Assembly (NCBI RefSeq): GCF_018141545.1
Contig: NZ_CP064356.1
Span: forward strand, 3,051,001 to 3,115,000
Direction of reading: 5' to 3'
Length of the DNA: 64,000 bases
DNA from: Miltoncostaea oceani
GTDB lineage: Bacteria; Actinomycetota; Thermoleophilia; Miltoncostaeales; Miltoncostaeaceae
The position numbers were made by a program, and so were the translations under genes. Below the pieces are notes generated by a model. It was given only the letters and a program-made list of their open reading frames with translations. It was not told the origin of the DNA and ran no database searches. Shown in pieces: positions 16,989-35,297 of the stretch (position 1 is the first letter of the stretch; each line of letters starts with the position of its first letter).

Positions 16989-16991
16989 TAG

Positions 16992-17063
16992 TGGGCAGTA
17001 CTGGGATCGAACCAGTGACCCCTCGCGTGTGAGGCGAGTGCTCTCCCGCTGAGCTAACTGCCC
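16992..17063 (-). tRNA. tRNA-Val (CAC)
   Basis: The minus strand folds into a complete cloverleaf: acceptor GGGCAGT/ACTGCCC, D-arm with AGCTCAGC GGGAGAGC, anticodon stem CTCGC/GCGAG around CTCACAC (anticodon CAC), and T-arm with GGTTCGATCC. CCA is not encoded. Confidence 0.97.
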
Positions 17064-17167
17064 GGGGCCGGCGGAGGATACCACCGGCCGGCCGGCCCTC
17101 CGGGGACCTCCGCGCCGGGCGGCCCCCCGCGGCGCGGACGGCCGTGAGGGGGCGCCGCGGCGCTCAG

Positions 17168-17256
17168 CGGAGAGGGAGGGATTTGAACCCTCGAGACGAG
17201 AGATCCCGTCTACGCGATTTCCAGTCGCGCTCCTTCGGCCGCTCGGACACCTCTCC
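17168..17256 (-). tRNA. tRNA-Ser (GGA)
   Basis: A class II tRNA with a long variable arm. The acceptor is GGAGAGG/CCTCTCC, the anticodon loop is CTGGAAA (anticodon GGA), and the T-arm contains GGTTCAAATCC. The discriminator base is G, as expected for serine. CCA is not encoded. Confidence 0.97.
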
Positions 17257-19186
17257 CGGTCGGCGATCGTAGCGCACGGCCCCGGCGCGCCGCGGGCCGG
17301 GATCGGGGCCTCCCGCGCTTGGTAGCCTCCGCCGCGGAGGGGTGGCAGAGCGGTCGAATGCGGCGGTCTCGAAAACCGTTTCGGGGGTTCTCCTCCGACG
17401 GGGGTTCAAATCCCCCCCCCTCCGCCAAAAGTGCGACGTTCGAACCCTGGCCCAGCAAAGAGGGGCCAGGGTTTTCGCTTTTCCCGGGGTCGTCCGCAAG
17501 GACGGCCCTTTCTTCGTTCTCGGCCAGGATTCGCCTGATCGCGGCCTCGACGTCCCTGGTGCTCGTGCGTTCCACAGGAGCCGTTCGCAGGTAGCGCTTC
17601 AGCTGCTCCTCCGAGCCCCACTCCTTTGCGTCGGTCCGCTCCGCCAGCTCCAGCAGTTCCCCGAAGGGCGATGCCAGCTGTCCGGTCGGCACGTCTCCGT
17701 CCTCGACGAAGATCCTCTCGAAGACGGCCTGGTTGAGCTGCCGGCGAATGTGCGGCGGTGCTGCCTGGTAGAGCCGGTGGCAGTCCGCCACGAGCGTCAG
17801 AGCTTGGTCAAGGCCCCGTTCGACGGACCCTAGTTCGGTGTTCAGCCGTCCCAGCGCCGCCTGCGTCGCCGCCATCTCGTTGCCGATCCTGGCTTGCTCT
17901 CGCTTCAGCAGGTCGAGCGGGACAGCCTCGGCGTAGTGAGCCTTCAGCAGCTTCTCCCGCTCGGCGTCGAGACGGGCCAGCCGGGCGCTCTGGCGTCCGA
18001 TCTCGGCCGTCTGCTCGCTCTGGGTGCGCTCGGCCAGATCGAGTACTGCTCGCCTGAGGGCCTCGCGCACATCAGCCGGCAAGACGACCGACTTCCACAG
18101 CTCGGCCACCCGGTCCTCGACCACGTCCATGGGCACGTAGGTCTGCGTGCAGCCTGAGCGGTGCTTCTGACGACCCAGGCAGTAGAAGTAGTCGTATTTT
18201 TGTCCGTGCCGGTTGGTGGTCTTGGTGACCCCCAGTCGCTCGCCGCACTGGCCGCAGGCCACCGTCCCTTTCAGATAGTGGGGGTGCTGGTAGGGCTTTT
18301 CCTTGGATAGGCGACGCGAGGTCTTCAGCGCCTGCACCTCCGCGAACAGCTCCTTGGAGATCAGCGGCTCATGGCGGCCCGGGTATTCGACTCCCTCGAA
18401 GACGACCACCCCGGCGTAGTACGGGTTGGCCAGCATCCGCTCGACCATCGAGGTCGTCACCGCCGTGCCTTTTGGCCGCTTCGCCGTCGGTCGAGTGGTC
18501 AGCCCCCGCTCGGTTAGAGCCTCGGTCAGCTCCCGGATCAGGTAGTCGCCCGAGACATAGGCGTCGAACATCCAGATGATGCGCGGTGCCCGGTGTGCAT
18601 CGATCCGCACCGTCCGAATGTCCCGACCCTCGACCCGCTCGATGACGTTCAGGTAGCCGAGCGGTGCCCGGGTCGGCGTTCCGCCGAGCCGCACCTTCTG
18701 GAGCAGCCCCTTCCTGACCTCGGCCGCCAGGTTCTGTGAGTAGAACTCGGCGATCGTGGCCATGATCCCGTGCAGCAACGTGCCGGAGGGTGTCTGGTCG
18801 ATGTTCTCGCTGGCAGAGACGAGTCGAGCGCCGCTGGCCCGGATGGCCAGGGCTATCTCGATGTCGTCGGCTCGATTACGGGCCAGCCGATCGACCTTGT
18901 GGACGATCACGAAGTCGATGTCGCGGTCTTTGATCCGCTCCAGCATGGCCAGCAGCGCTGGCCGGTCGGCGGAGCGGGCGCTCTCGCCGCGGTCGAGGTA
19001 CTCCTCGACCACCTTGGCGCCGAGCCCTTCGGCCGCGCGCTTGCAGGCCTCGCGCTGGGCCGGGATGGAGTAGCCCTCGGTCCCGTAATCCTTGTCGGCC
19101 TGAGCCGAGGTCGAGACGCGCAGATAGATGACCGCCCGCTTCGACAGCTCGCTCGTCTGGATCGCCTCGGTGTCCACCCCGGTCAT
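17210..19186 (-). CDS. large serine recombinase (element integrase), 3' end running through a tRNA gene
   Basis: A large serine recombinase. The resolvase domain starts AVIYLRVSTSAQ (catalytic Ser in VST), followed by IDFVIVHKVDRLARN and a DNA-binding recombinase domain. A zinc ribbon (CGQCGERLG ... FYCLGR ... SGC) and a coiled coil (~residues 395-470) come next. It should cut and religate att sites for integration and excision. The start ATG at 19186 gives a normal N-terminus. Oddly, no stop appears before the gene meets tRNA-Ser(CGA): the frame continues antisense through that tRNA and into tRNA-Ser(GGA), so the last ~75-80 residues are probably not native. Confidence 0.88.
   Translation of the reverse strand: MTGVDTEAIQTSELSKRAVIYLRVSTSAQADKDYGTEGYSIPAQREACKRAAEGLGAKVVEEYLDRGESARSADRPALLAMLERIKDRDIDFVIVHKVDRLARNRADDIEIALAIRASGARLVSASENIDQTPSGTLLHGIMATIAEFYSQNLAAEVRKGLLQKVRLGGTPTRAPLGYLNVIERVEGRDIRTVRIDAHRAPRIIWMFDAYVSGDYLIRELTEALTERGLTTRPTAKRPKGTAVTTSMVERMLANPYYAGVVVFEGVEYPGRHEPLISKELFAEVQALKTSRRLSKEKPYQHPHYLKGTVACGQCGERLGVTKTTNRHGQKYDYFYCLGRQKHRSGCTQTYVPMDVVEDRVAELWKSVVLPADVREALRRAVLDLAERTQSEQTAEIGRQSARLARLDAEREKLLKAHYAEAVPLDLLKREQARIGNEMAATQAALGRLNTELGSVERGLDQALTLVADCHRLYQAAPPHIRRQLNQAVFERIFVEDGDVPTGQLASPFGELLELAERTDAKEWGSEEQLKRYLRTAPVERTSTRDVEAAIRRILAENEERAVLADDPGKSENPGPSLLGQGSNVALLAEGGGFEPPSEENPRNGFRDRRIRPLCHPSAAEATKRGRPRSRPAARRGRALRSPTGRGVRAAEGARLEIA
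17336..17427 (+). tRNA. tRNA-Ser (CGA), probable integration site
   Basis: A class II tRNA: acceptor GGAGGGG/CCCCTCC, anticodon loop CTCGAAA (anticodon CGA), a long variable arm, T-arm GGTTCAAATCC, and an encoded CCA. Foreign genes start right after its 3' end, with the serine recombinase reading towards it, so the 3' end or the following terminator is a likely attachment site. The gene remains complete. Confidence 0.96.
17443..17480 (+). terminator. rho-independent terminator after tRNA-Ser(CGA)
   Basis: AACCCTGGCCC and GGGCCAGGGTT form a perfect 11-base-pair stem with a nine-base loop, followed by TTCGCTTTT. It can end tRNA-Ser transcription and also lies inside the 3' end of the recombinase reading frame on the other strand. 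Confidence 0.75.
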
Positions 19187-25734: not shown

Positions 25735-25788
25735 CTCAGGTCTTCCTGAGTGCTGGCCACATTTGCCAAGAGCGCGACACATTTGCCA
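25735..25788. promoter_or_regulatory. divergent regulatory region with tandem ACATTTGCCA repeats
   Basis: ACATTTGCCA occurs twice in the same orientation (25759-25768 and 25779-25788), exactly 20 bases apart, two turns of the helix. The inverted repeat CTCAGG-tctt-CCTGAG lies at 25735-25750. The second repeat ends 11 bases before the ATG at 25800. The layout suits a regulator controlling the gene pair at 25.8-27.5 kb, the small genes on the other side, or both. Confidence 0.5.
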
Positions 25789-25799
25789 GCCTTGAGGAC

Positions 25800-26852
25800 A
25801 TGACGGACGACTCACTCCGCCTCGCGGCTGCCCTCCGTCAGATTCGGCGCGGTCATGGCGCCCAAGACTGGCGCGTTTGGTCGGCCATCCCAAGGGACCT
25901 GCGCCTCCGCCTCGGTGTCAGCAGTGACGCCAGCGAGCAGACGCAGTGCGAGGAGCTCCAGCGCCGCGTTTCCGCCGTCGTTCAGGAGTCTCCTGACAAA
26001 GTATTCCTCACGGCGATACTAAATCTGGATGGCGAAGACTCTCTCTGGCTAGACCGTCTCCGCCGGTATACAGGCCCTTCGCAGGGCAAGTTTCGAACGC
26101 TGCAGCGCCACGCCGACAGCGCACTTCTGACGTTAGCGTCCAGCTTAGTGGGCCCCACGCAGCTGGCCCGCGATAGCAAGCCGCCCTTCACCCGAGTGAG
26201 TGTCGCGATCGCCCTCCGAGACGGCGATGCCGGTCAATTCATCGCTACCGTTGACTCACGCTTCACCGTCGAAGGCGTTTCGGAGTATCTAGTGGCCATT
26301 GTCGCGGGACCTCAACGCGCCGACGCGCTTTTAGCAGACGGCGTCGCCCTCGACGAAGTGTGGAGCCTTCGAGACGACGAGCAGTTCACCATGCGCGCCC
26401 GCGATGCGCTCGACAGCTTCTCATTGGGCTACTACCGAGCCTCAGCCCAATCCCTGCGACTCGTCCCGCTCCATCCTCAGGTTCTTGAAGACCCGATCTC
26501 GAAGAGGTACCTCCCGGTCCCGGATTGGGACCTGCTCCCCGGCAGAGTCGTAATTGGGCGCTTCGACCTGCCGACCGATATTCGGCCCCTTTCGCTCAGA
26601 TGCTCCCATACCACCCGGCGTGCGACGACCATCCCGAACTTCTATTGGCAGTCGGATCGTAGAATGACCTTAGAATCCCTCACTATCGATATCGGCGGAC
26701 TGACCACGAACGCCTTCGGACCTGCAGTCGTGCCCTTTCTTCCTTCGGTCAGCCACGACGGACGCTTCACATCGCTTCCGCCGGACGGGCGCTACGTGTT
26801 ACGCTGTGAGCAATGGATAAGCCAAGGTCACGGCGTGATGATAGCGTGGTAG
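25800..26852 (+). CDS. unknown protein paired with a C39-like protease gene
   Basis: I do not recognise this 350-residue protein. There is no signal peptide or membrane helix. The N-terminal ~115 residues are helical (LRLAAALRQIRRGHGAQDWRVW; TLQRHADSALLTLASSL). The rest is a mixed alpha/beta region with several strands and a cluster ending YVLRCEQWISQG. Its last 40 bases overlap the start of the C39-like protease gene, so the two are surely co-expressed and probably work together. A diverged 60-base fragment of this gene lies at 29431-29490. Codon use is less GC-biased than in the backbone, so transfer is likely. Confidence 0.7.
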   Translation: MTDDSLRLAAALRQIRRGHGAQDWRVWSAIPRDLRLRLGVSSDASEQTQCEELQRRVSAVVQESPDKVFLTAILNLDGEDSLWLDRLRRYTGPSQGKFRTLQRHADSALLTLASSLVGPTQLARDSKPPFTRVSVAIALRDGDAGQFIATVDSRFTVEGVSEYLVAIVAGPQRADALLADGVALDEVWSLRDDEQFTMRARDALDSFSLGYYRASAQSLRLVPLHPQVLEDPISKRYLPVPDWDLLPGRVVIGRFDLPTDIRPLSLRCSHTTRRATTIPNFYWQSDRRMTLESLTIDIGGLTTNAFGPAVVPFLPSVSHDGRFTSLPPDGRYVLRCEQWISQGHGVMIAW

Positions 26853-27496
26853 CGCCGAATCCCGTTAGGCGCTTATGGAGCAACACGCCTGATGACAACC
26901 ACTGTTTGCAGAGCGCGGTGGGGATGATTGTGGAGACGCTCCAAGAGCGTACGGAGCCACTACAAACGATCGACAAACAGACGGGCTACGTGCCCGAGCG
27001 ACTCACCTGGTCGTTCCGCGCCATGCTCTATATGGCCAATCTAGGGCTACGCATACAGTGGATCGAAGACTTCGACCGCACCCTTTTCCTTCGTGACGCG
27101 CGCGCAGCTATTGCACCCATGTTCGACAACGACGATGACCTAATCGCACGCATCCTGGAGGGGACCGACGTGCGTCTAGAGCAGGACGTCGTCGCCAATC
27201 TCTTGAACCATCCTCGAGTGCAGAACGAGATTCGCGTGCCCACCGTAAGCGACATCAAGAGCGCGATTAAGGGGCAATCGCTGGCACTCTGTCCCATCAA
27301 TGTCCGAGTGCTGCAACAGCGTGAGGGCTGGTACGGGCACTTCGTTGTGGTCGATGGGTATTCATCGACTGAAGTTCGCACACAAGACCCAGGGCTGCCG
27401 CCGGTCGCGAACCAATGGCTGGACGACGAGCGCTTCGCGAAGGCCTGGGCGTGGCCAGAGCCGGCTCTCGCGAGCGCGACTCTGATCAGCCGTTGA
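26813..27496 (+). CDS. C39-like cysteine peptidase domain protein
   Basis: A 227-residue protein with the residues of the papain-like C39 fold: Cys31 in DDNHCLQSAVGM, His176 in GWYGHFVVVDGY, and Asp192 in RTQDPG. It lacks a signal peptide and membrane spans, so it should act in the cytoplasm. It is not beside an ABC exporter or double-glycine leader peptide, unlike bacteriocin-processing C39 domains. It starts inside the upstream unknown gene, which may be its substrate, inhibitor or sensor. The catalytic triad is visible; the biological role is inference. Confidence 0.7.
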   Translation: MDKPRSRRDDSVVAPNPVRRLWSNTPDDNHCLQSAVGMIVETLQERTEPLQTIDKQTGYVPERLTWSFRAMLYMANLGLRIQWIEDFDRTLFLRDARAAIAPMFDNDDDLIARILEGTDVRLEQDVVANLLNHPRVQNEIRVPTVSDIKSAIKGQSLALCPINVRVLQQREGWYGHFVVVDGYSSTEVRTQDPGLPPVANQWLDDERFAKAWAWPEPALASATLISR

Positions 27497-27752
27497 ACTT
27501 AGTTTCCGCCCCCGCCGCCGCCGCCTCCCGGATGCGGCGGTCTTGGATCGAGCCTGGCGTTTCGAAGCATGTTCAGCCTCCTAGCCTGTTGATCGGCTCT
27601 TCGCGTGCAGTCTAACCCGGTAGATGGCGATGAAGGAAGGCTCAGGGCGCCCTACCCACCAATCGTTGCGTCGTCGCTTCGTGGCAAGGCAGGAGCAACC
27701 CATCCAGCGCCGTAAATCGCCACGTACACCAGCCAGCACTCGAGGAGACGCC

Positions 27753-28172
27753 GTGGCCAACGAGGCACCAAACGACGCATCGCCGCCCGAGGTCCCCGAG
27801 ATGGCCGCGTCCGGCCGCGGGAGCGTCGGACGAGAGATCTTCGAGCAGACCGAGCGCCTGGTCGCCACAGGCATGGGAAAGACCGACGCCTTCAAGCAGA
27901 TCGCACAGGAATCCGGTCGTCGCGAAGGTGCCGTGTCCGCCAACTACTACCGCGTCGCTCGGCAGCAAGGCGGCGGCTCGACGCGCGCGCGGCGAGGCCG
28001 GCCGCGAGGTTCGGGCGCTACGTCTCCCCGCCGCACTTCAGGTGGTAGCCGCGACGTCATGACCATTCTCGACGCCTTGGAAGCAGACCTCCGGAAGCTT
28101 CGTGAAGTTGTCGCCGCCCAAGAAGAGCGGCGGCTGACCCTCGAACGATCGGTTCGCGAGATCCTGCGGTAG
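27753..28172 (+). CDS. putative DNA-binding protein with helix-turn-helix and coiled coil
   Basis: A 139-residue protein. Residues ~25-65 (GREIFEQTERLVATGMGKTD; IAQESGRREGAVSANYYRVA) look like a helix-turn-helix in which SANYYRVA would be the recognition helix. A basic, Gly/Arg/Ser-rich linker follows, and then a C-terminal coiled coil (LEADLRKLREVVAAQEERR). I chose the GTG at 27753 after GAGGAG; an ATG at 27624 is in frame but the intervening sequence looks non-coding. TTGATC (27591) with TCTAAC 16 bases on may be its promoter. It is probably a regulator or nucleoid-type protein. Confidence 0.6.
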   Translation: MANEAPNDASPPEVPEMAASGRGSVGREIFEQTERLVATGMGKTDAFKQIAQESGRREGAVSANYYRVARQQGGGSTRARRGRPRGSGATSPRRTSGGSRDVMTILDALEADLRKLREVVAAQEERRLTLERSVREILR

Positions 28173-28200: not shown

Positions 28201-28824
28201 AAAAGCAAACGCCCCGGGTCAGTCTTCGCGCTGTCGCCCTCGCCCTCGCAGCTGTGTGCCCGCTGCAGCCTCACGGCAGCCGGACTCCAGTCGTTCCCGG
28301 AGGCGTCGGAGCTGTGGCGCATCAGAGGTACCGTCGCTTGGTACCAGCGTAACTATACCGCGGCTTACGCTTCGCTCACGACTTCACTACACTTCGGATC
28401 GCTACGACGGGTTGTTCTAAATGCCCAGGGACAAGTCCTTGCCGAACGGGGCAGCCTCACCACCGCTCTCAACGGCTTGCACGAGGCCCTGTCTGATAAC
28501 GCTCCTCCTGAGTTCGGCGCCGACGTTGGTGTGGCAGAGGCCTCCCTGCCTCACGGAAAAGCCTATGCTTTGAGCGCGCTTGCTTACTGCCACTGGCTTC
28601 TGGGCCAAGAGTCTCTCGGGCTGAAGGAGTTTGAGGCGGCTGCGGCCGTGACACCCGATAACGCCTGGCTATACTATCGCTGGGCACGGTGTTATGATAA
28701 GAGCGGTAATACGCTCGAAGCTACGATTCTCTTCCAGCGCGCGCTTAATTGTCGTACGCCACCGTTGAATCCGCTGAAGGCAGAGATGGCAACAGAGTGG
28801 CTGAGAGAAAACAACGCAGCATAG
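28201..28824 (+). pseudogene. TPR-like protein lacking a start codon
   Basis: One frame is open from 28138 to 28824 and encodes TPR-like helices (LWRIRGTVAWYQRNYTAAYASL; AYALSALAYCHWLLGQ; NAWLYYRWARCYDKSGNTLEATILFQRAL) after a CxxC-type start (LCARC). No ATG, GTG or TTG occurs in frame before a TTG at 28477, which would remove half the domain. The 5' end is therefore probably lost or frameshifted. The 3' end overlaps the pyroglutamyl peptidase start by 28 bases. A CTG start would be the alternative. Confidence 0.5.
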
Positions 28825-29411
28825 AAACGACGGTACTGGTGACGGGCTTCGGCCCGTTTCCAGGGATCGCGAACAACCCCTCGGGCGCACTCGTGGAGAC
28901 ACTGCAATCTAGTAACGCGGGCTTCTATCGCACCGCCGCCTTGCTGCTGCCCACGAGTTATCAGCGGGCGTTTGAGGAGCTCGTCGCAACGGATCTCGAG
29001 GTAACAGCCATAGTGATCGTCGGTTATGCGGCGGGCACGACCGGGATGAGGCTCGAGCAGGTCGCCTTCAACGAAGCGGCCGCGCCGATCCCTGATATAG
29101 ATGGCCACTCGGTCGTGGGCGCTCTTGACGAGGCTGGCCCCTTCTCTCTTCGCACGTCCGCGGATGTCGTGCAGCTTGCAGCGGCCGCGGAGTCGGTGGG
29201 CTGCCCAGCTGTGCTTTCTACGGATCCCGGACGGTACGTCTGCAACGCGACGTACTACAAGGCGCTTAGGCGGTACCAGGAGCTAGGCGTCCCAGTTGTC
29301 ATGGCCCACATCGGTGACTGGACGCCGCACGTTTTCCATGGCGACCTAGTGGCGGCCGGCCTGGAAGCGGTAGTCACCTCGGTTGCTGGCAGTATCGCGT
29401 CCGCTACATAG
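28797..29411 (+). CDS. pcp: pyroglutamyl-peptidase I (C15 family)
   Basis: A 204-residue cytosolic cysteine peptidase that removes N-terminal pyroglutamate. LVTGFGPFPGIANNPS is the family N-terminus. The triad is visible as Glu87 in MRLEQVAFN, Cys149 in DPGRYVCNATYYKAL, and His171 in VVMAHIGD. The GTG at 28797 was chosen; the frame is open a little further upstream. It overlaps the TPR-like frame before it. Its presence amid mobile cargo is unusual. An enzymatic house-keeping role or a role in a defence/toxin context are both possible. Confidence 0.85.
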   Translation: MAERKQRSIETTVLVTGFGPFPGIANNPSGALVETLQSSNAGFYRTAALLLPTSYQRAFEELVATDLEVTAIVIVGYAAGTTGMRLEQVAFNEAAAPIPDIDGHSVVGALDEAGPFSLRTSADVVQLAAAAESVGCPAVLSTDPGRYVCNATYYKALRRYQELGVPVVMAHIGDWTPHVFHGDLVAAGLEAVVTSVAGSIASAT

Positions 29412-29430
29412 CACGCGCGTTCCCCTGACT

Positions 29431-29490
29431 GTCCCGGGGCCTCAACGCACCGACGCGCTGTTAAGAGACGGCGTCGCCCTCGACGAGGTG
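29431..29490 (+). pseudogene. short diverged copy of the 25.8-kb gene
   Basis: These 60 bases align without gaps to 26301-26360 inside the unknown gene, with seven mismatches (about 88 per cent identity). The encoded peptide PGPQRTDALLRDGVALDEV matches AGPQRADALLADGVALDEV. Nothing else of that gene is present here, so this is a remnant of a related copy. Confidence 0.75.
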
Positions 29491-32400: not shown

Positions 32401-33657
32401 ATGCCACAGGATGCCGGCAAGACGGCGCCGCGATTCCTTAGTCGCGTAGTCTCGTACTACTACGGGTCTGGCGATTACAACGGCCTCCGCATCGATCGCG
32501 AGGACAGCCCGTGGTCACGCGCGGCAGGGACCTTGCTACGTAAGGGGCTCATTGAAGTTATCGCGGAAGTCGATTTCCCGAACCCACATGTGAGACCGTG
32601 GGCGTGTCGGAGAAGTACCGACGAGCAACTCGAGAGCGTCCGTTCAGCGATGTCTGGAACAGGCCCCGCAGTGTGCCTGTACCCAACGGCCGTAGCGCTG
32701 AGGGGACGGCCCGAGGTCGAAGCGCTCAGGGACGAACCATTTGAGCAACGGCTCGCGAGCGGATCGGGCGGCCTAGAACTTGCATTCTTCCGCATCGACG
32801 TATTGGAGTCGTATCGCAACGATCCGACCTTTCGCTTCGACTTCAGTGATTTCGGCGCGAAGACGGCAATCTCCGACGACGCGTACACGAGCGATGAGAC
32901 GCCGGAGCACGAGAAGGTGCTCTTGCACTACCTTGGCTTTGCTTACGCTCAGCCGGTTCGGCGACAAGGGCCGATAGAACGGAGCGTCGCGGGGTTCGTC
33001 CGGGACCTTGCCAAGCTCTCTGCGGTGCATCAGCGAAGGTGGGCTACGTACGAGCTCACCGGGGGCGGCTGGCAGGCGCACCCGATGTGGTGGCGCCAGA
33101 TGATGGGAGAGTGGCCCGACGGCCGGGGGCCGTTCGAGGCCTTACTATATGAGCTCACGGTGTGGAACGAACTCCACGAGAGGGCATTCGGCACGCCCCT
33201 AGTGCGGAGCACGGAGCGGCCTCGGGAGTTTGGCTGGGTCCTGCGCCCGTCCCAAAGAGAGTACGACGACTTCGTGCAGCTGCTAGACAAGCTGTTGTCG
33301 GAGAATCTGCGGCACGAGGCGTTCGACGCAGCAGGCGTTCCCCGCAAGAGCTCAAAGGGCATGGACCACGCGACGCTCACCAGGTTGAACCTCTTGCTGG
33401 AGAAGACCGGCATCCCCAAGGACAGCCGGTCGGAGATCCTGAAGCCCCTAAGGCACGTTCGGAGTGCTCGTTCGAAGCCGGCCCACGCCATACGTCGAAA
33501 CATCACCAATGCGAGCTTCGTACACCGGCAGGCCGAGCTAATGAGCGAAGTGACGGGCTCCTTGCGAGATCTACGGCTGTTCTGGCAGAGGCACCCAGCG
33601 AACCAAGATTGGTGTGCGTCCGACCACCTAGCCGATCTGAAGGCTTACTGGCTTTGA
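32401..33657 (+). CDS. unknown third gene of the CBASS operon with HEPN-like C-terminal motif
   Basis: A 418-residue soluble protein that I cannot assign. Its ATG directly follows the CD-NTase stop, so it is translated by re-initiation from the same mRNA. The N-terminal ~300 residues contain no known motif. The C-terminal ~120 are helical with LRHVRSARSKPAHAIRRN; Arg357-x4-His362 matches the RxxxxH catalytic signature of HEPN ribonucleases (compare RNKxAH in abortive-infection proteins). It may be a second effector or regulator. The HEPN reading rests on one motif plus predicted helices; the gene order is certain. Confidence 0.7.
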   Translation: MPQDAGKTAPRFLSRVVSYYYGSGDYNGLRIDREDSPWSRAAGTLLRKGLIEVIAEVDFPNPHVRPWACRRSTDEQLESVRSAMSGTGPAVCLYPTAVALRGRPEVEALRDEPFEQRLASGSGGLELAFFRIDVLESYRNDPTFRFDFSDFGAKTAISDDAYTSDETPEHEKVLLHYLGFAYAQPVRRQGPIERSVAGFVRDLAKLSAVHQRRWATYELTGGGWQAHPMWWRQMMGEWPDGRGPFEALLYELTVWNELHERAFGTPLVRSTERPREFGWVLRPSQREYDDFVQLLDKLLSENLRHEAFDAAGVPRKSSKGMDHATLTRLNLLLEKTGIPKDSRSEILKPLRHVRSARSKPAHAIRRNITNASFVHRQAELMSEVTGSLRDLRLFWQRHPANQDWCASDHLADLKAYWL

Positions 33658-33892: not shown

Positions 33893-35050
33893 TCACTTCT
33901 CCTCCGACGCGCCGGTACGACACGAGCGGCGGAGGTAGTCGTTTAGGAGCTCGGCCGCCTCGTCCTCATTGCCGGGCATGAGGTGGCCGTAACGGTCGAA
34001 GGTCATCTGGATCGAAGCGTGGCCGAGGTACGCCATCAGGCCCCGTGCGTTGACCCCCGCGGCAATGCACATCGAGGCGAAGGTGTGGCGGCACTCGTGA
34101 AATCCAATCGGCTGCAGCTCAGCCACGGCCCAGGCGCGGAGGGCACGCTCCCGAAGGCTGACATGGGCGAACGGGCGCGTTTCCGAGCGTCCGAAGATGA
34201 GTCCACGGCGACGTCCCGACCGTAGAAGGTGCTTGGCCAGGTGGGCGCGCAGCTCTTCTGCGATGGGCACTCGCCGGCGCCCGCTCCGGCTCTTCGGCTC
34301 GATCGCGCCTTCCCTGGCATCCCATGACCGATCGACGCTGATCCGACCCGCGTCAAGGTCGACGTCCGAGACCCGGAGCGCCTTCAACTCGCCGAGCCGC
34401 AGGCCTGCATAGAGGGCGGTCGCCCAGATGGCCCGGTCGCCCACAGGGAGAGCCGCCAGGAGCTGCGCCGCCTCAGAGGGAGAGGCGACCCTGTCCCGAA
34501 CCCCACGCACCGCTGGCAGCTCCAAGTGCTCGAGTGGCGAGACAGTCACCTGACCAGCCCGCAAGGCGCGCCTGTAGAGCACGCGCAGAGGCATGATCGC
34601 GTTCCGGACAGTCGACGGGGACGCGCCATCCGCGACGAGGCGATCGCAGAGAGCCTGAACGTCCCTGCGCCTGACCGCGTCGAGCTTCATACCTCCGAGC
34701 GCCGGCAGAACGTGCCGCTCGAGGTGAGCCCCGTAGCCGCGCAGGACACTCGGCTTGTAGACGTCTCCCGAGCGGTTGCGGACCGATCCGTCGGCCATCC
34801 CATCGAGCAGGCTGTCGGCCGCCTGGCGGACAGTGGGCTGCCGCTCTGCCGTCAACGTCCCGCGGCGCACGGCGGTGACCGCCTCCGCTCGCCAGGATCG
34901 CGCGGCGGCCAGGCTCGAGAAGGTCCTGCGGATTTCGCGGCCGTCGCGCGGGCTCCATACCGCGGCGCGATAGCTCGGCTGGCATCCGCACCGCCGACCG
35001 TCGTGGGCGGCGCAGCCCCGCCGGTGGCGCACCTCTATTCCCGCAGGCAA
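33893..35050 (-). CDS. int: tyrosine recombinase (integrase)
   Basis: A 385-residue phage-type integrase. The N-terminal part has CxxC-like Arm-binding sequence (RGCAAHDGRRCGC), followed by a core-binding SAM-like domain and the catalytic domain: first Arg in ALYAGLRLGELKAL, HECRHTFAS box, YLGHASIQMTFDRYGH with the catalytic Tyr. It integrates and, with the excisionase-like protein upstream, excises the element. I chose the TTG at 35050 (GAGGG upstream); a GTG at 35032 is possible. It is downstream of and close to the excisionase-like gene. Confidence 0.92.
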   Translation of the reverse strand: MPAGIEVRHRRGCAAHDGRRCGCQPSYRAAVWSPRDGREIRRTFSSLAAARSWRAEAVTAVRRGTLTAERQPTVRQAADSLLDGMADGSVRNRSGDVYKPSVLRGYGAHLERHVLPALGGMKLDAVRRRDVQALCDRLVADGASPSTVRNAIMPLRVLYRRALRAGQVTVSPLEHLELPAVRGVRDRVASPSEAAQLLAALPVGDRAIWATALYAGLRLGELKALRVSDVDLDAGRISVDRSWDAREGAIEPKSRSGRRRVPIAEELRAHLAKHLLRSGRRRGLIFGRSETRPFAHVSLRERALRAWAVAELQPIGFHECRHTFASMCIAAGVNARGLMAYLGHASIQMTFDRYGHLMPGNEDEAAELLNDYLRRSCRTGASEEK

Positions 35051-35072
35051 CGGGCCGCCCTCGATGTCTCGC

Positions 35073-35297
35073 TTAGCTCGCCCATCGTGCGGCCTCTCTC
35101 TCCAACCAGCGCTCAAGTTCTCGGATGGGCACGATGAGACATCGACCGCGCCGAACGATGCGCAACTCGTGCCGAATGTGTCGGTCGAATGTGTCGCGCG
35201 AGACGCCGATTGCAGCGGCGGCTTCATCCAGCGAGAGGCCGAGGCGTGGCGGGGTCGGTCCGTCCGAGGAACGCAGTGGAGAGGGTGTCGAGCTCAT
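35073..35297 (-). CDS. excisionase-like helix-turn-helix protein
   Basis: A 74-residue protein with a MerR/AlpA-type helix-turn-helix (LSLDEAAAAIGVSRDTFDRHI) and wing-like RGRCLIVPIRELERWLERE. These are typical recombination directionality factors lying just before integrases. It starts on an ATGA overlapping the end of the lysozyme-like gene, so it is co-translated with it, an odd partner. Integrase follows 22 bases later. Confidence 0.85.
   Translation of the reverse strand: MSSTPSPLRSSDGPTPPRLGLSLDEAAAAIGVSRDTFDRHIRHELRIVRRGRCLIVPIRELERWLEREAARWAS

What the first reader, a model, noticed from the sequence alone, without database searches (positions are those of the whole stretch)
25759..27496. 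Uncharacterised two-gene unit: unknown protein overlapping a cytoplasmic C39-like protease
The two genes overlap by 40 bases, lie in AT-richer cargo next to CBASS and metal resistance, and start beside tandem ACATTTGCCA repeats. The protease has a visible Cys31-His176-Asp192 triad but no exporter or leader peptide nearby, so it is not a bacteriocin processor. A protease with an obligate partner in a defence-bearing region is a reasonable candidate for a new defence or toxin-antitoxin-like system.
Basis: partly seen in the sequence, partly recalled or inferred. Interest (0 to 1): 0.66.

Follow-up and report, generated by a model that had tools for sequence, protein, structure and literature searches.

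The report
Peptidase–partner gene pair on mobile element
A mobile DNA element carries two overlapping genes, an intracellular cysteine peptidase of the papain/C39 kind and a protein of unknown family; the same two kinds of gene sit together on a plasmid of a bacterium from another phylum, so the pair is probably a working unit, but its target and any role against viruses are unproven.

Summary
P1 (25800-26852, 350 aa) overlaps a C39-like gene (26813-27496, 227 aa) by 40 bases in a 61% GC cargo block between conjugation/recombinase genes, beside Cap15 CBASS and a cadmium transporter. The peptidase is real: AlphaFold pLDDT 93.9, papain/C39 fold, no transporter or other domain. About 30 relatives were found, mostly CPR/Patescibacteria, with Cys31 invariant. 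Nearly all are lone genes in varied, often housekeeping, neighbourhoods, so the partner is not obligate for the family. P1 matches no family, yet its one recognisable relative lies directly beside another C39-like gene, on a Hymenobacter plasmid: ATP-grasp / C39-like / P1-like (with two membrane helices). A pair shared by two phyla in swapped order, both times in mobile DNA, argues for a functional link. The sister C39-like gene in Bryobacteraceae adjoins a LanC-like gene, so peptide processing cannot be ruled out. New here: a 61-nt, 89% relic of a second P1-like gene (29430-29490) follows a pyroglutamyl-peptidase-like gene. Best reading: a P1-guided or P1-regulated cytosolic cysteine peptidase, mobile cargo with a conflict or peptide-processing role; classical toxin-antitoxin is disfavoured. 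Defence is unproven.

The parts
25758..25788 (.). Pair of CACATTTGCCA direct repeats, 20 bp start to start, directly upstream of P1; possible operator or activator site
   Evidence: 2 matches in window; 1 of 100 shuffles has as many; only copy of the pair in the genome. Function not tested.
25800..26852 (+). P1, 350 aa, unknown family: mainly helical first third, strand-rich C-terminal part; residues 214-350 homologous to the C-terminal domain of the Hymenobacter P1-like protein
   Evidence: 37.4 bits, best of 1000 shuffles 27.7; no Pfam, NCBIfam, PADLOC, PHROG family. Structure prediction failed (pLDDT 33); secondary structure is only indicative.
26813..27496 (+). C39-like papain-fold cysteine peptidase, 227 aa, single domain; Cys31 codon 26903-26905, His176 27338-27340, Asp192 27386-27388; alternative GTG start 26846
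   Evidence: PF03412 E 4e-4, 20.6 bits, under the 22-bit cut-off; 30 relatives; pLDDT 93.9; PeiR Z 16.2, PCAT1 15.1, 3erv 14.1.
26813..26852 (+). 40-nt overlap of P1 and peptidase reading frames (7 nt if GTG 26846 is the start): translational coupling likely
28749..29411 (+). Pyroglutamyl-peptidase-like (C15) gene with the expected Glu, Cys and His motifs (LEQVAFN, YVCNATYY, AHIG)
   Evidence: PF01470 E 1.5e-20; motifs read from the sequence.
29430..29490 (+). 61-nt relic of a second P1-like gene (VPGPQRTDALLRDGVALDEV against VAGPQRADALLADGVALDEV in P1), just downstream of the C15 gene
   Evidence: 89% identity, E 2.5e-16; only these two places in the genome match over full length; no unusual fold.

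Best explanation
A two-gene accessory module on an integrative, conjugation-related element. Shown: the second gene encodes a single-domain papain-fold (C39-like) cysteine peptidase (by sequence and predicted structure) with a conserved Cys-His-Asp triad and no transporter domain; the first encodes P1, whose C-terminal domain recurs beside another C39-like gene on a plasmid in another phylum. Inferred: P1 and the peptidase are translated together and form a complex or act in sequence. P1 supplies recognition or regulation through its strand-rich C-terminal domain, and in the Hymenobacter version two membrane helices tether it. The peptidase cuts, or transfers a peptide from, an intracellular protein or peptide. 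The likeliest biological role is a conflict or accessory function of the element, conditional proteolysis being somewhat likelier than peptide maturation. The substrate and the trigger are unknown.
For: Fold and catalytic residues. Tight overlap. Pairing in a second phylum: Hymenobacter volaticus plasmid NZ_CP095065.1 has ATP-grasp / C39-like / P1-like as overlapping genes. P1 against the P1-like protein: blastp 2e-7 over 144 residues, collinear to near both C-termini with a shared GHG..I.W ending; 37.4 bits against at most 27.7 in 1000 shuffles. No other P1-like gene was found in 346 Actinomycetota genomes, 138 genomes of the phylum of G608, or 72,556 plasmids, so meeting the pair twice by accident is unlikely. 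Mobile setting: serine recombinase, Replic_Relax, T4SS coupling protein, tyrosine integrase, low GC, CBASS neighbour. A relic of a second P1-like gene next to another cysteine peptidase gene hints that P1-like proteins go with peptidases.
Against: The pairing rests on two loci, and the P1 homology covers only the C-terminal ~140 residues at 24% identity. P1 against two unrelated long frames, picked as the best out of 396 genomes, gives similar raw scores (37.4 and 34.7 bits), so the score convinces only because the Hymenobacter protein was chosen by position and not by search. Most peptidase relatives are single genes. No usable structure for P1. The Hymenobacter unit has an ATP-grasp gene that the window lacks.
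Confidence: 0.42

Rival explanations
1. Anti-phage abortive-infection system: P1 senses infection and releases or activates the peptidase, which cleaves an essential host or phage protein.
For: Cargo of a mobile element directly upstream of a Cap15 CBASS operon; two-gene overlapping architecture; strongly diverged peptidase (end branch 3.35 against a median of 0.85).
Against: No match in PADLOC; proximity to one CBASS is a single observation; Hymenobacter and Bryobacteraceae relatives have biosynthesis-type neighbours.
Confidence: 0.25
2. Peptide maturation: the C39-like enzyme trims or cyclises a ribosomal peptide made by neighbouring modifying enzymes, and P1 binds the precursor.
For: C39 domains process leader peptides (PMC10885120); the Bryobacteraceae relative adjoins LanC (PF05147, 5e-30), with glycosyltransferases and a radical SAM gene further off; the Hymenobacter relative adjoins an ATP-grasp gene with weak matches to RimK and peptide-maturase models. 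ATP-grasp loci with varied peptidases and no visible precursor are described (PMC8939145).
Against: No modifying enzyme, precursor-like gene or exporter was recognised next to the window pair; no precursor was identified in the two relatives either.
Confidence: 0.2
3. Toxin-antitoxin: the peptidase is toxic and P1 neutralises it.
For: Upstream unknown gene overlapping an enzyme gene; papain-like toxins with immunity partners exist (9l5u, 8ssk among fold matches).
Against: About 29 relatives of the peptidase occur without a detected P1, some with conserved neighbours (ispG in L002 and L023, prfB in L024 and L036), so the enzyme is tolerated alone; gene order is reversed in Hymenobacter.
Confidence: 0.1
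4. Ordinary stray cytosolic peptidase picked up by the element; P1 an unrelated neighbour.
For: Most relatives are lone genes, some vertically kept, in small-genome lineages.
Against: 40-nt overlap; recurrence of the pair in a second phylum; window copy is in mobile DNA and strongly diverged.
Confidence: 0.18

Closest known systems
Peptidase C39 domain of bacteriocin/RiPP exporters (PF03412; PCAT1, ComA, LahT)
   Same: Papain fold, Cys-His-Asp triad; VIA-align Z 14-15 over ~134 residues
   Different: No ABC transporter; a helical insertion of roughly 70 residues between the two halves; HC at the catalytic Cys; below Pfam's cut-off
Single-domain C39-like peptidases (PF13529, PDB 3erv) and DUF3335 (PF11814)
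   Same: Transporter-free papain-like domain; A1 profile finds 3erv at 2e-5; DUF3335 weakly matches P0002
   Different: Weak scores under curated cut-offs for the window protein; the group here has its own NT.D.HC.Q, GY.GH and HDPGLP motifs
Hymenobacter volaticus plasmid locus MUN86_RS27755-27765 (NZ_CP095065.1)
   Same: C39-like gene plus P1-like gene in one tight operon on a plasmid
   Different: Order reversed, extra ATP-grasp gene, P1-like protein carries two membrane helices in place of P1's N-terminal part
Pseudomurein endoisopeptidase PeiR (PDB 8z4h)
   Same: Best fold match, Z 16.2 over 145 residues, 15% identity
   Different: Targets archaeal cell wall; no shared context
CBASS with Cap15 (2TM effector) in the same cargo
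   Same: Neighbour on the element
   Different: Separate genes about 3.3 kb away; no shared component

Membership tests
C39 bacteriocin-processing peptidase (PF03412, PCAT type) | Papain-like C39 fold | tested here: met
C39 bacteriocin-processing peptidase (PF03412, PCAT type) | Cys-His-Asp/Asn catalytic residues | tested here: met
   geometry in the model not measured
C39 bacteriocin-processing peptidase (PF03412, PCAT type) | Fused to, or beside, an ABC exporter with a double-glycine precursor | tested here: not met
   227-aa single domain, no exporter gene around it
C39 bacteriocin-processing peptidase (PF03412, PCAT type) | Score above Pfam gathering cut-off | tested here: not met
   20.6 bits against 22
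C39-like papain-superfamily peptidase, transporter-free | Single papain-like domain related to 3erv | tested here: met
C39-like papain-superfamily peptidase, transporter-free | Peptidase activity | not testable with these tools
   Needs purified protein
RiPP maturation locus | Precursor gene and modifying enzyme next to the peptidase | tested here: not met
   None recognised by ORF listing and Pfam in the window; met in part only in relatives (LanC, ATP-grasp)
Known anti-phage defence system | Match to a PADLOC model | tested here: not met
   neither gene; PADLOC-DB 2.0.0 of 2023
Toxin-antitoxin | Enzyme occurs only with its partner | tested here: not met
   Relatives without P1-like neighbours
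Toxin-antitoxin | Toxicity relieved by the partner | not testable with these tools
   Needs expression test

The most novel reading that the evidence does not exclude
P1-like proteins are exchangeable partners (sensor, adaptor or substrate carrier) of cysteine peptidases in an undescribed mobile conflict system: P1 with C39-like here, with C39-like and ATP-grasp in Hymenobacter, and a relic of another P1-like gene beside a C15 pyroglutamyl-peptidase-like gene.
Probability: 0.15. Interest if true: 0.75.

Novelty: new variant of a known kind. Interest (0 to 1): 0.42.

Why it matters
If P1 controls the peptidase, this is a compact regulated-proteolysis module moved by mobile elements between phyla, and a new route to finding peptidase-based defence or peptide-processing systems. 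The work also outlines a widespread, transporter-free C39-like family in CPR bacteria that matched no NCBIfam model here and whose substrate is unknown.

Tried and rejected
Single-sequence scans of genome and viral collections with the peptidase found nothing, nor did the alignment in viral contigs; a hand-made DNA signature built on three diverged members worked (none in viral contigs). P1 search in 396 Actinomycetota gave only marginal matches (bits 15-18) inside long frames; six at E<=0.01 per genome is about the chance number, so they were dropped. Structure prediction of P1 from one sequence failed. The weak PADLOC match of the 418-aa gene 32401-33657 (E 0.07) was ignored. The 61-nt repeat was tested as a genome-wide repeat or hairpin element: only two full copies, no unusual fold. 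Kaur et al. 2020 (PMC7159879) has no C39 mention and one papain-like peptidoglycan peptidase domain among effectors, not this. The peptidase tree does not resolve where the window copy belongs. Surveys of Actinomycetota, Acidobacteriota-side and Bacteroidota-side genomes for further pairs found only lone peptidase genes or nothing.

Full report
What is there. P1 (25800-26852, 350 aa) and a C39-like gene (26813-27496, 227 aa) lie head to tail on the + strand and overlap by 40 nt. Both show coding-type codon-position composition. They open an AT-richer cargo block (about 61% GC against 67-75%) flanked by a serine recombinase (17.2-19.2 kb), an IrrE-type peptidase gene, Replic_Relax, a type IV coupling protein and, on the right, a tyrosine integrase (33.9-35.2 kb). 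The cargo also holds a pyroglutamyl-peptidase-like gene, an ArsR regulator with a cadmium transporter, and a CBASS with Cap15 and CD-NTase. The CACATTTGCCA pair is unique in the genome.

The peptidase. Pfam's C39 model matches just under its cut-off. A profile of three diverged members finds the C39-like structure 3erv. An AlphaFold model from 29 aligned sequences has pLDDT 93.9 and matches papain-fold enzymes, best PeiR, the PCAT/ComA peptidase domains, phytochelatin synthase and 3erv. Cys31 stands at the start of the first long helix, His176 in a strand and Asp192 at the end of the next, the usual papain order; I did not measure distances in the model. A DNA signature taken from the three first members (window, Hymenobacter, G199) fetched 30 loci, every one encoding a relative. 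Cys31, outside the signature, is invariant in all 31 aligned sequences; the His and Asp/Asn positions were partly selected by the signature, but a relative found by profile alone (L048) keeps all three.

Is the partner obligate? No. In the fetched loci the peptidase gene is alone, beside unrelated genes (by sequence, ispG, prfB, pyrB, a YceG-like gene, dnaG and others), and no P1-like ORF was detected. Two actinobacterial copies both follow ispG, and two Roizmanbacteria copies both precede prfB, so these behave like settled chromosomal genes.

Is the pairing real? Probably. The Hymenobacter volaticus plasmid relative is flanked upstream by a RimK/R2K-like ATP-grasp gene and downstream by a gene whose full ORF is 373 aa, starts inside the peptidase gene (14-nt overlap) and begins with two hydrophobic segments. 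Its last 130 residues align with the last 137 of P1 (2e-7; 37.4 bits against 27.7 for the best of 1000 shuffles). This protein was examined only because of its position, so few comparisons were made. Similar raw scores for two long frames picked from 396 genomes show that this score would mean little in a blind search. Searches for P1-like genes elsewhere were empty, though sensitivity for a lone diverged sequence is low.

What the sister clade says. Hymenobacter and Bryobacteraceae peptidases form a fully supported clade (100/100). The Bryobacteraceae one lies directly downstream of a LanC-like gene, with glycosyltransferase genes beyond it on the other strand and a radical SAM gene further off. 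Peptide maturation is therefore a live alternative, as described for ATP-grasp loci with diverse peptidases and no visible precursor (PMC8939145) and for C39 enzymes in general (PMC10885120).

A second trace of P1. A 61-nt segment of the P1 gene recurs at 29430-29490, 89% identical and in the coding sense (VPGPQRTDALLRDGVALDEV), immediately after the pyroglutamyl-peptidase-like gene; the genome has no other full copy. I read it as the remains of a second P1-like gene. It hints, no more, that P1-like proteins keep company with cysteine peptidases.

Mechanism. Shown: predicted fold, conserved catalytic residues, overlap, mobile setting, recurrence of the pair. Inferred: co-translation, complex formation, regulation or targeting by P1, cleavage of an intracellular substrate. 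Not shown: activity, toxicity, defence. A toxin that always needs its antitoxin is unlikely, because relatives stand alone. Defence is plausible from location only.

Verdict. A real, probably functional pair built from a known enzyme kind and an unfamiliar partner; interest moderate.

Noticed in passing
29430-29490 and 26300-26360: 61-nt, 89% identical direct repeat: relic of a second P1-like gene after the C15 gene.
   Followed up: yes
32401-33657 (+): 418-aa gene directly after the CD-NTase of the Cap15 CBASS, no Pfam family and no PADLOC match of weight; a possible unrecognised third CBASS gene.
   Followed up: partly
L046 637-3492: TIR - NB-ARC - TPR protein gene about 4 kb upstream of the LanC/C39-like genes in Bryobacteraceae, past transposase-like ORFs.
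   Followed up: no
16991-19186 and 33893-35227: Element has both a large serine recombinase gene, whose 3' part overlaps two predicted tRNA-Ser genes, and a tyrosine integrase gene; possibly nested elements. No long flanking direct repeat found.
   Followed up: partly
L003 5971-6633 and 6620-7741: The annotated start of MUN86_RS27765 (6830) misses 70 N-terminal residues with two membrane helices; the longer ORF overlaps the peptidase gene by 14 nt.
   Followed up: yes
27624-28172: 182-aa protein gene downstream of the peptidase without any family match.
   Followed up: no
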